A stretch of 64,000 bases of DNA, from positions 6,941,241 through 7,005,240 of the forward strand of contig NZ_JAUSQZ010000001.1 in the NCBI RefSeq assembly GCF_030811555.1, given 5' to 3'. Positions 14,175-17,756 of the stretch are shown piece by piece. Each line of letters starts with the position of its first letter. The stretch's first letter is position 1. Origin of the DNA: Kineosporia succinea (GTDB lineage Bacteria > Actinomycetota > Actinomycetes > Actinomycetales > Kineosporiaceae). Position numbers and translations under genes: made by a program. The notes under the pieces were generated by a model. It ran no database searches, was not told the origin of the DNA, and was given only the letters and a program-made list of their open reading frames with translations.

Positions 14175-14503
14175 CGGTCCGACCTCCCGGCCTGCAGGGA
14201 CAGGCATGTGCACAGCGAACCGACGGCATGACTTCCGCACTCCTCAGGTCTCCACTACCAAGAGGTGACCTACGACTACTCAGCGGATTGGTCGGGTACG
14301 CAAAGCGCGCGTTTGTCACGTGTTTTCAAGTTTACGACGCATCGGGGGATGCTCGGATCGACGTGGCCCGGACGTGACCGATCCGTCATGAAAACAATCC
14401 CGGCGAAAGACGCCACCGACCGCTGGACGACCGGCGATCACCCACCTACAGTTGTCGCTTGATCCTATTTGTCCGTTTTCCTGGCCGCGACGAAGGAGAT
14501 CCC
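14175..14503. other. intergenic region upstream of the peptide/P450 locus
   Basis: 329 bases between the divergent LCP gene and the 20-codon peptide gene. It is less GC-rich than its surroundings, contains a GTCACGTG palindrome-like element at about 14315-14322, and holds the candidate promoter listed separately. No further gene seen. Confidence 0.5.
14424..14452 (+). promoter_or_regulatory. candidate sigma-70-type promoter for peptide/P450 operon
   Basis: TGGACG (14424-14429) and TACAGT (14447-14452) are spaced by 17 bases and match four of six positions each of the -35 and -10 consensus. Transcription would begin near 14459, leaving a leader of about 45 bases before the peptide start. The matches are moderate, so this is only a candidate. 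Confidence 0.35.
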
Positions 14504-14566
14504 ATGAAGCAGCTCATCGCCCGTCTCACGCGCAGGTCCATGCCCGGCCGGTACAGCTGGCACTGA
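14504..14566 (+). CDS. putative 20-residue RiPP precursor peptide (biarylitide-like), core YSWH
   Basis: ATG 14504 is preceded by GAAGGAGAT (14491-14499), one of the best ribosome sites in the window, and the frame ends at TGA 14564-14566. The peptide is MKQLIARLTRRSMPGRYSWH. It has a basic, amphipathic leader (four Arg and one Lys before the core) and ends in an aromatic tetrapeptide directly after Arg. The minimal biarylitide precursor known from Planomonospora is MRYYH, in which a P450 joins Tyr and His side chains of the C-terminal YYH and the core is released after Arg. The same logic (Arg then Tyr...His-COOH) is visible here, with Trp added and one residue more between Tyr and His. A P450 gene begins 14 bases downstream. 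Prediction of a crosslinked YSWH product is inference; the reading frame, ribosome site and neighbour are direct observations. Confidence 0.72.
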   Translation: MKQLIARLTRRSMPGRYSWH

Positions 14567-14580
14567 TCGAACCTTCCGGC

Positions 14581-15804
14581 GTGGGCGGGCGGGCCGCGCG
14601 GCCCGTCCCCCGCGCCGATGTCCGCGATCCCGTCGAGTCCGGACTCAGCTGGCGCGCTTTCACCCGCGCCTACAACACTGACCGCCTCGCGTTCCTCAGC
14701 TCGCTCCCCCGGCGCGGCCCGGTCGTCCGGATGGCCGCCAACCTCGTCTTCGTCACCGATCCGGGCCTGATCGAAACCATGTTCCGGCGCACGAACACCG
14801 ACTTCCTCATGCCCCTGAACCGGCGCCTGGAGCCGGTGGACTCGGCCCGCGGTGAGGCCGCCCTCGAAGCCTGGATGCGCGCCCGCCGCAACTCCGCCGC
14901 ACTCCTGCACGCCGCCGCCGGGCCGGCCGACGACACCACCCGGGCCGAGATGGCTCAGCAGGTCGAAACCTGGAGGGCCACAGCCGGTCCCGTCCCCGTT
15001 CTCCACGACCTCAACCGCCTGAGTCTGCGCGAGACGATCCGGCTCGTGACCGGCGTCCCCCGATCGGACCTGGAAAGCCGCACCCTGGAACTCATCGCGC
15101 CGCTCACCGAGGTGATCGACCGGGGCACCCGCCTGCGCGGCGCCCTGGCCCTGCTGACGCGGCGCCACCGGCGCACCGCCCGGCAGGACGCCGACCTGCG
15201 CAGACTGGTGCTGGCCGTTCCCGCGTCCGGAGGCCTGATCGGCGAACTGGCCCGGGAGGGGACCGACCCCGAGGTGGTGGCCAATTTCGCCGTGGCCGTG
15301 CTGCTGGCCGGGTCGGTGGTGCCGGCCTCCGCCGGGGCCTGGACGCTGGCCCTGCTCGCCGCGCACCCGGCCTGGCAGGAGCGCGCCCGGCACGATCCGG
15401 TGGCCCGCGGCTGGTTCGTCAGCGAGAGCCTGCGGCTCTATCCCCCCACCTGGCTGCTCAGCCGGAACGTCGCCCGCGACGGCATCTTCGCGGGCTGGCG
15501 GCTTCGAACGGGCGACGAGGTGGTCGCGTCCGCGTACGTCAGCCACCGGGACGCGTGGGTTTTCGACGACCCGCACACGTTCAGGCCCGAGCGCTGGCCC
15601 GGTCTGCGCCCGGGCCTGAGCGAGTACTTCCCGTTCGGGGCCGGGGCCCGGCGCTGTATCGGCGCGGGGCTGTCCCGGGCCCGGCTGGAGGATCTGGTCG
15701 CCGGGGTGCTGCGGCCCGGACGGCCGCTGGAGGGCCGCTGGCCGGAACGGATCTCGACCCGGGTCACCCTGGCCCCCGACGACCTGCGGATCAGCTTCGG
15801 CTGA
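14581..15804 (+). CDS. cytochrome P450, candidate peptide-crosslinking enzyme
   Basis: 407 residues if started at GTG 14581 (MGGRAARPVPRADV), 14 bases after the peptide stop; in-frame TTG 14452 would overlap the peptide gene and give a non-family N-terminus. P450 hallmarks: ExxR at Glu282-Arg285 (ESLRLYPP), PERF-like FRPERWPG, and the heme loop FPFGAGARRCIGAG with proximal Cys359. The I-helix segment reads LLAGSVVPASAG (residues 241-252): the usual acid-alcohol pair (AGxD/E-T) is absent, which suits an enzyme doing radical coupling rather than oxygen insertion, though this is inference. Probably co-transcribed and translationally coupled with the precursor gene, hence a candidate BytO-like Tyr/Trp/His cross-linking enzyme. 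Redox partners are not nearby. Its 3' end overlaps the convergent MBL gene by 14 bases. Confidence 0.85.
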   Translation: MGGRAARPVPRADVRDPVESGLSWRAFTRAYNTDRLAFLSSLPRRGPVVRMAANLVFVTDPGLIETMFRRTNTDFLMPLNRRLEPVDSARGEAALEAWMRARRNSAALLHAAAGPADDTTRAEMAQQVETWRATAGPVPVLHDLNRLSLRETIRLVTGVPRSDLESRTLELIAPLTEVIDRGTRLRGALALLTRRHRRTARQDADLRRLVLAVPASGGLIGELAREGTDPEVVANFAVAVLLAGSVVPASAGAWTLALLAAHPAWQERARHDPVARGWFVSESLRLYPPTWLLSRNVARDGIFAGWRLRTGDEVVASAYVSHRDAWVFDDPHTFRPERWPGLRPGLSEYFPFGAGARRCIGAGLSRARLEDLVAGVLRPGRPLEGRWPERISTRVTLAPDDLRISFG

Positions 15805-17411: not shown

Positions 17412-17756
17412 ATGAAGATGAAGAGCCTGGCGGCAGGGATGCTGACGGCGGGGGCGGTTGCCTCGCTGGGGGTCATCGGCTCGGCGGACGCGGCTCAGGC
17501 GGCGGCCTGCGGCACCAGTCACTCGGTGACGAACGCCGGTGCGAAGTCGCAGTACTCGATCAGCTGCTCCGGCGGGAAGGTCTACGTGTCGGGCAGCGTC
17601 ACGGACACCGACGCCGACGGCAAGTGCGCCCAGGTGAAGGCGCAGATCATCGGAACCTGGTTCTACAGCGCGAAGGCCTGCCCCGAGGGACAGACGAAGT
17701 ACTTCAGCTGGTCGCACATCGGCAGCAGCGCCGCCGTGTACACCTACACGGTCTGA
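17412..17756 (+). CDS. small secreted protein of unknown function
   Basis: 114 residues with GGGGAG eight bases before ATG 17412. Signal peptide MKMKSLAAGMLTAGAVASLG...AQA with cleavage near residue 31. The mature 83 residues contain four Cys (ACGTSH, ISCSGG, GKCAQV, KACPEG), probably two disulfides, and end in a beta-rich segment (SSAAVYTYTV). No known domain. It resembles in plan the secreted protein at 10387-10878 (short, Cys-paired, beta-rich), but sequence similarity is not convincing. Followed by a strong bidirectional hairpin. Confidence 0.75.
   Translation: MKMKSLAAGMLTAGAVASLGVIGSADAAQAAACGTSHSVTNAGAKSQYSISCSGGKVYVSGSVTDTDADGKCAQVKAQIIGTWFYSAKACPEGQTKYFSWSHIGSSAAVYTYTV

What the first reader, a model, noticed from the sequence alone, without database searches (positions are those of the whole stretch)
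14504..15804. Candidate two-gene RiPP cluster: a 20-residue precursor ending RYSWH directly before a P450
Seen: a very strong ribosome site (GAAGGAGAT) and a 20-codon ORF, MKQLIARLTRRSMPGRYSWH, ending 14 bases before a P450 gene. Known: biarylitides are the smallest RiPPs, made by a precursor such as MRYYH and one P450 that joins Tyr and His side chains, with the core released after Arg. Inferred: the present core would be YSWH, with Tyr, Trp and His all able to be coupled. The core is one residue longer than YxH and carries Trp, so the ring size and bond would be new. The locus has no protease, transporter or acetylase, as in minimal clusters. The 60-bp gene is too short for ordinary gene callers, so it will often be missed.
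Basis: partly seen in the sequence, partly recalled or inferred. Interest (0 to 1): 0.93.

Follow-up and report, generated by a model that had tools for sequence, protein, structure and literature searches.

The report
Tiny peptide gene paired with P450
A 20-residue peptide gene overlooked by ordinary gene finders sits directly in front of an enzyme gene, and the same pair recurs in two other bacteria, so it is very probably a real minimal pathway that makes a small ring-shaped peptide; it is a new variant of a known kind of pathway.

Summary
MKQLIARLTRRSMPGRYSWH (14504-14566, +) has a strong ribosome site and ends at the start of a P450 gene. It is the only one of 237 short ATG ORFs in the window ending in Y-x-W.

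Conservation confirms the pairing. The two closest P450s found (64% and 60% identity) each follow a matching ORF: Kineosporia babensis MKRIIERLTRKTMPGRYSWH and Streptomyces hoynatensis MKFFSRLTRKSMPGRYPWH. Flanking genes differ in K. babensis, so the pair is the unit.

This is not a biarylitide, which uses a five-residue precursor. The P450 is sister (96/95) to P450s preceded by ...GAYPWIP precursors, within a clade whose precursors share Y-x-[W/Y]. These short-leader P450s replace the I-helix acid-threonine pair with V/I-P, which fits side-chain coupling rather than oxygen insertion. The likely product is a Tyr-x-Trp ring, a kind already known for YPW (micitide 982), carrying an extra invariant C-terminal His. 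Ring chemistry, leader removal and activity are untested; a Tyr-His or double ring is not excluded. No held paper reports this core, but the library is incomplete.

The parts
14492..14503 (+). Shine-Dalgarno region of the peptide gene (GAAGGAGATCCC just before ATG)
   Evidence: sequence
14504..14566 (+). precursor peptide gene, MKQLIARLTRRSMPGRYSWH: leader MKQLIARLTRRSMPGR, predicted core YSWH
   Evidence: conserved before P450s in L031 (15/20 identical) and L032; one hit in the genome
14563..14565 (+). candidate CTG start codon of the P450, overlapping the peptide stop TGA (14564-14566)
   Evidence: same CACTGATC junction in K. babensis, where no ATG/GTG/TTG is available in frame; inference
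   Evidence: Pfam p450; NCBIfam best match ApyO, below cut-off; tree; AlphaFold model of 14581-15801 with pLDDT 87.8
15274..15360 (+). I-helix VVANFAVAVLLAGSVVPASAGAWTLALLA: V-P in place of the acid-threonine pair
   Evidence: alignment
15628..15663 (+). heme-binding motif FPFGAGARRCIG

Best explanation
A two-gene RiPP pathway. The 20-aa peptide is translated from a strong ribosome site, and translation of the P450 is probably coupled to it (CTG start overlapping the stop). The basic leader (RLTR[RK][ST]MPG) docks on the P450, placing the last four residues at the heme. The P450 joins the side chains of Tyr17 and Trp19 (Y-x-W, i to i+2, loss of 2 H), leaving His20 as a conserved C-terminal tail. 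A general host protease then cuts after Arg16 to give cyclic YSWH; in S. hoynatensis the adjacent S33-type hydrolase may do this. Shown here: the genes, their conservation as a pair, the P450 relationships, the shared Y-x-[W/Y] motif and the loss of the I-helix acid-threonine pair. Inferred: docking, the coupled residues, bond type, cleavage site, and translation from CTG.
For: The precursor-P450 pair recurs in K. babensis and S. hoynatensis. The two Kineosporia ORFs are 50/63 identical in DNA against about half in the flanks, with Ser kept through AGC to TCC. The K. babensis flanks differ, and the window's MBL gene lies elsewhere in G004 and G005 without the pair. The P450 is sister to four P450s behind GAYPWIP precursors (bootstrap/SH-aLRT 96/95), in a wider group with GRYPYW, G[FM]YTYW, TYLYPYP and GYY[AS]YP precursors. 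Aligned precursors share Y-x-[W/Y], mostly as G-x-Y-x-[W/Y], behind basic leaders. The I-helix is VVPA/LVPA instead of ETT, as in the other short-leader groups. Tyr-Pro-Trp C-C rings are known for micitide 982 (PMC13250620), and a P450 acting on a YPW motif is cited in PMC13383641 (ref 42).
Against: No product or enzyme assay exists for this family. Only three full precursor-P450 pairs were found, so the invariance of H is weakly tested. The AlphaFold attempt to dock the S. hoynatensis precursor in a read-through chain was uninformative (pLDDT below 50 for the peptide).
Confidence: 0.66

Rival explanations
1. Same two-gene RiPP, but the terminal His takes part: a Tyr-His (i to i+3) ring as in a stretched biarylitide, or two rings involving Tyr, Trp and His.
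For: His is the last residue and invariant in all three precursors; biarylitide P450s couple Tyr to a C-terminal His, including MKYWH (PMC13417212); the cittilin P450 makes two links in one short core (PMC8708641).
Against: The nearest P450 groups share Y-x-W/Y and have no His at this place (GAYPWIP).
Confidence: 0.2
2. Precursor and P450 belong together, but the P450 hydroxylates, nitrates or oxidatively cleaves the peptide, perhaps to supply a modified amino acid, as RufO does with a biarylitide-like pentapeptide.
For: A related switch is documented for RufO (PMC13417212; PMC12186263 abstract).
Against: The I-helix acid-threonine pair used in oxygen insertion is replaced by V-P; no NRPS or nitric oxide synthase is seen beside the pair; the core keeps two or three coupling-competent aromatics.
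Confidence: 0.08
3. The ORF is not a substrate but a short upstream ORF that controls P450 translation by coupling; the P450 acts on a small molecule.
For: The stop overlaps a possible CTG start in both Kineosporia.
Against: Amino-acid sequence, especially the C terminus, is conserved with synonymous drift; in S. hoynatensis the P450 has its own ribosome site and an ATG 237 bases downstream, yet the peptide is kept; related P450s have comparable basic-leader, Y-x-W/Y peptides.
Confidence: 0.04

Closest known systems
Micitide 982 (mci; MciB) and the YPW-acting P450 MpoB ('cyptide synthase')
   Same: P450 cross-links Tyr and Trp across one residue (Tyr-Pro-Trp ring in micitide; YPW motif for MpoB, title cited). 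S. hoynatensis has YPW itself and the window has YSW.
   Different: Here the core ends at an invariant His, x is Ser or Pro, and the precursor is only 19-20 aa. MciB and MpoB sequences were not held, so kinship to them is by motif only.
P450s behind ...GAYPWIP precursors in Streptomyces (L048-L051, found here)
   Same: Sister clade of the P450 (96/95), same V-P I-helix, basic leader, G-x-Y-x-W core.
   Different: About 34% identity, longer precursor (28-31 aa), core continues I-P, heme motif PYGxGxRWCVG. Not described in the papers searched.
Biarylitides (BytA/BytO, P450Blt)
   Same: Minimal precursor plus one P450, aromatic-x-aromatic cross-link, precursor missed by gene callers (PMC13417212).
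   Different: Biarylitide precursor is five residues, MxYx[Y/H/W]; here 20 residues with a conserved leader and core YxWH.
Cittilins
   Same: 27-aa precursor and P450 CitB linking tyrosines in a tetrapeptide (PMC8708641). The cittilin-type precursor L084 shares the leader string ARLTRK with this family.
   Different: Core is Y-x-Y-Y with two links, and the L083/L084 P450s keep the I-helix ETT.
Atropopeptides (tryptorubin A)
   Same: Two-gene clusters, 10-40 aa precursors, P450 builds aryl links, generic protease (PMC11450843).
   Different: No KSLK-type leader motif and no W-x-x-W/Y core here.
Aminopyruvatide P450 ApyO
   Same: Best NCBIfam match for the three P450s (112-138 bits); ApyO forms a Tyr-Tyr link in YLY (PMC13192836).
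   Different: Far below the equivalog cut-off of 525 bits; ApyO clusters also use an MNIO; separate branch (L040).

Membership tests
P450-cross-linked RiPPs (general kind) | short precursor gene adjacent to a P450, conserved as a pair across genomes | tested here: met
   three genomes, two families
P450-cross-linked RiPPs (general kind) | P450 installs an aromatic side-chain cross-link (2 Da loss) | not testable with these tools
   needs expression and MS/NMR
Biarylitide | five-residue precursor MxYx[H/Y/W] | tested here: not met
   precursor is 19-20 aa with an in-frame conserved leader in three genomes
Biarylitide | P450 within the BytO/P450Blt clade | not tested
   no BytO/P450Blt sequence could be fetched; MRYYH pattern absent from 150 Streptomyces
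Micitide / YPW group | Y-x-W core, link between Tyr and Trp | tested here: inconclusive
   Y-S-W or Y-P-W present in all three precursors; the bond itself not testable
Micitide / YPW group | P450 groups with P450s of YPW precursors | tested here: met
   sister to the GAYPWIP P450s, 96/95; identity of that group with MciB/MpoB not tested
Cittilin | core YxYY and P450 in the cittilin-type clade | tested here: not met
   core YxWH; L083/L084 P450s lie on a separate branch with ETT I-helix
Atropopeptide | KSLK-type leader motif | tested here: not met
   leader has R[RK][ST]MPGR instead
Atropopeptide | W-x-x-W/Y core | tested here: not met
   core Y[SP]WH
Aminopyruvatide (ApyO equivalog) | NCBIfam NF050147 cut-off 525 bits | tested here: not met
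   112.8, 127.6 and 138.2 bits

The most novel reading that the evidence does not exclude
The P450 makes a bicyclic tetrapeptide from YxWH in which Tyr, Trp and His are all joined (for example Tyr-Trp plus Trp-His or Tyr-His), a ring system not among the cross-links described in the papers read here, from a translationally coupled two-gene cassette.
Probability: 0.12. Interest if true: 0.75.

Novelty: new variant of a known kind. Interest (0 to 1): 0.52.

Why it matters
It adds a conserved, very rare precursor-enzyme pair (three intact cases found) to the P450-modified RiPPs, with a Trp-His tail that can be tested by simple co-expression. It also ties the pair to a set of related short-precursor P450 clusters that share one I-helix change. 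That change offers a sequence marker, V/I-P in place of the acid-threonine pair, for finding more of them where peptide genes are too short to be called.

Tried and rejected
A search for exact core strings in the papers found nothing relevant. A search for biarylitide MRYYH genes as a phylogenetic yardstick found none in 150 Streptomyces. The profile search of 396 phylum-wide and 395 class-wide genomes found no further close member; Kineosporiaceae held: 2 of 13. The plasmid collection gave none. AlphaFold of the S. hoynatensis precursor read through into its P450 did not dock the peptide. A fold search of the P450 model returned general P450s (CYP175A1, CYP184A1, P450 BM3), no RiPP enzyme among the listed hits. 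A -1 frameshift fusing peptide and P450 was considered and set aside: no slippery sequence at the junction, and S. hoynatensis has separate genes. The empty-site test could not be done: other Kineosporia lack the same gene order around the site.

Full report
The observation. The window carries, on the + strand, GAAGGAGATCCC followed by ATG and 20 codons, MKQLIARLTRRSMPGRYSWH, stop at 14564-14566, then a P450 reading frame to 15804 with the Pfam P450 domain. Of 237 ATG ORFs of 12-40 residues on both strands of the window, 17 have a Shine-Dalgarno and only this one ends with Y-x-W. The DNA pattern for MPGRYxWH-stop occurs once in the 8.07 Mb genome with up to 2 mismatches. The neighbours are a LytR/CpsA/Psr-like gene and an MBL-fold gene, both on the other strand; there is no dedicated protease, transporter or acetylase.

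The pair is conserved. A scan of about 85,000 bacterial and archaeal genomes for relatives of the P450 found two full-length close homologues: Kineosporia babensis (64%) and Streptomyces hoynatensis (60%). Both have the peptide. K. babensis has MKRIIERLTRKTMPGRYSWH directly before the P450, and S. hoynatensis has MKFFSRLTRKSMPGRYPWH 237 bases before it. Within Kineosporia the ORF is 50/63 identical in DNA against roughly half in the flanks. The 13 nucleotide changes include several silent ones, among them Ser kept through AGC to TCC. The K. babensis flanking genes are unrelated, and the window's MBL gene sits elsewhere in two other Kineosporia genomes without the pair. So the unit is peptide plus P450. 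A third relative, in Sciscionella marina, is only a C-terminal P450 fragment beside an alpha/beta hydrolase. S. hoynatensis also has a TauD-like oxygenase, an FMN-dependent dehydrogenase, an S33-type hydrolase directly after the P450, and an MFS transporter.

What the P450 is related to. A profile search of 393 Streptomyces found four next-nearest P450s at 207-232 bits and many near 120-137 bits. Reading upstream of them, and of relatives in the family of Sciscionella, gave short basic precursors with aromatic ends: GAYPWIP, GRYPYWPY, G[FM]YTYW, TYLYPYPT, GYY[AS]YP, and a signal-peptide-like set ending AYYYYYVQAR. Two more from the class-wide search end PYIYY and PYSYY, like cittilin. In a maximum-likelihood tree the window, K. 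babensis and S. hoynatensis form a clade (100/100) sister to the GAYPWIP P450s (96/95). Aligned on the core, these precursors share Y-x-[W/Y], mostly as G-x-Y-x-[W/Y], behind a basic leader. In the short-leader groups the I-helix reads V/I-P where ordinary P450s, and the cittilin-type P450s found here, read E-T-T. General P450 knowledge holds that the acid-threonine pair serves oxygen activation for hydroxylation, so its loss fits oxidative coupling; that step is inference.

How it most likely works. The leader docks on the P450, the enzyme couples Tyr17 and Trp19 with loss of two hydrogens, and a host protease frees the tetrapeptide after Arg16. The Tyr-x-Trp choice rests on the related precursors and on micitide 982, a Tyr-Pro-Trp ring with a Tyr-Trp C-C bond (PMC13250620), and on a reported P450 acting on a YPW motif (cited in PMC13383641; that paper is not held). 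The invariant His could be a tail or a second coupling partner. Three sequences cannot decide this.

Start of the P450. K. babensis has no ATG, GTG or TTG in frame between the peptide and the conserved P450 body. In both Kineosporia the best shared candidate is a CTG overlapping the peptide stop (CTGA). Translational coupling through a CTG start is therefore likely but unproven.

Membership. It is not a biarylitide (precursor 20 aa, not five), not a cittilin, not an atropopeptide (no KSLK motif) and not ApyO (below the cut-off). It works like the YPW-type P450 RiPPs and its P450 is sister to a YPW-precursor group, but identity with the micitide family could not be tested. No held paper mentions this core; the library omits most subscription papers, so a published genome-mining table may already list it.

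Noticed in passing
L031:4929-5016 and window 14563-14581: The K. babensis P450 frame has no ATG, GTG or TTG start; a CTG overlapping the peptide stop is shared with the window.
   Followed up: partly
L053, L056, L061, L064, L062, L074, L079, L060, L063, L073, L075: Further P450-linked short precursors in Streptomyces and the family of Sciscionella (GRYPYWPY, G[FM]YTYW, TYLYPYPT, GYY[AS]YP); I do not know whether they are described.
   Followed up: partly
P450s of L048-L064, L073-L079: I-helix acid-threonine pair replaced by V/I-P in all short-leader groups but not in the cittilin-type or AYYYYYVQAR groups; a possible search marker.
   Followed up: yes
L048-L051 P450s: Heme motif reads PYGxGxRWCVG, with Tyr in place of the usual Phe.
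   Followed up: no
L039:4971-6134 (Sciscionella marina): Remnant of the same P450 (about 75 residues) next to an intact alpha/beta hydrolase of the S. hoynatensis kind; a decayed cluster.
   Followed up: partly
L040:5939-5995 (Nitrospira MAG): ORF ending GRLGEGWLYD after an ApyO-like P450; looks like an aminopyruvatide-type precursor outside Burkholderia.
   Followed up: no
window 17412-17756: 114-aa ORF that looks secreted (MKMKSLAAGMLTAGAVASLGVIGSADAAQAAACG...); not examined.
   Followed up: no
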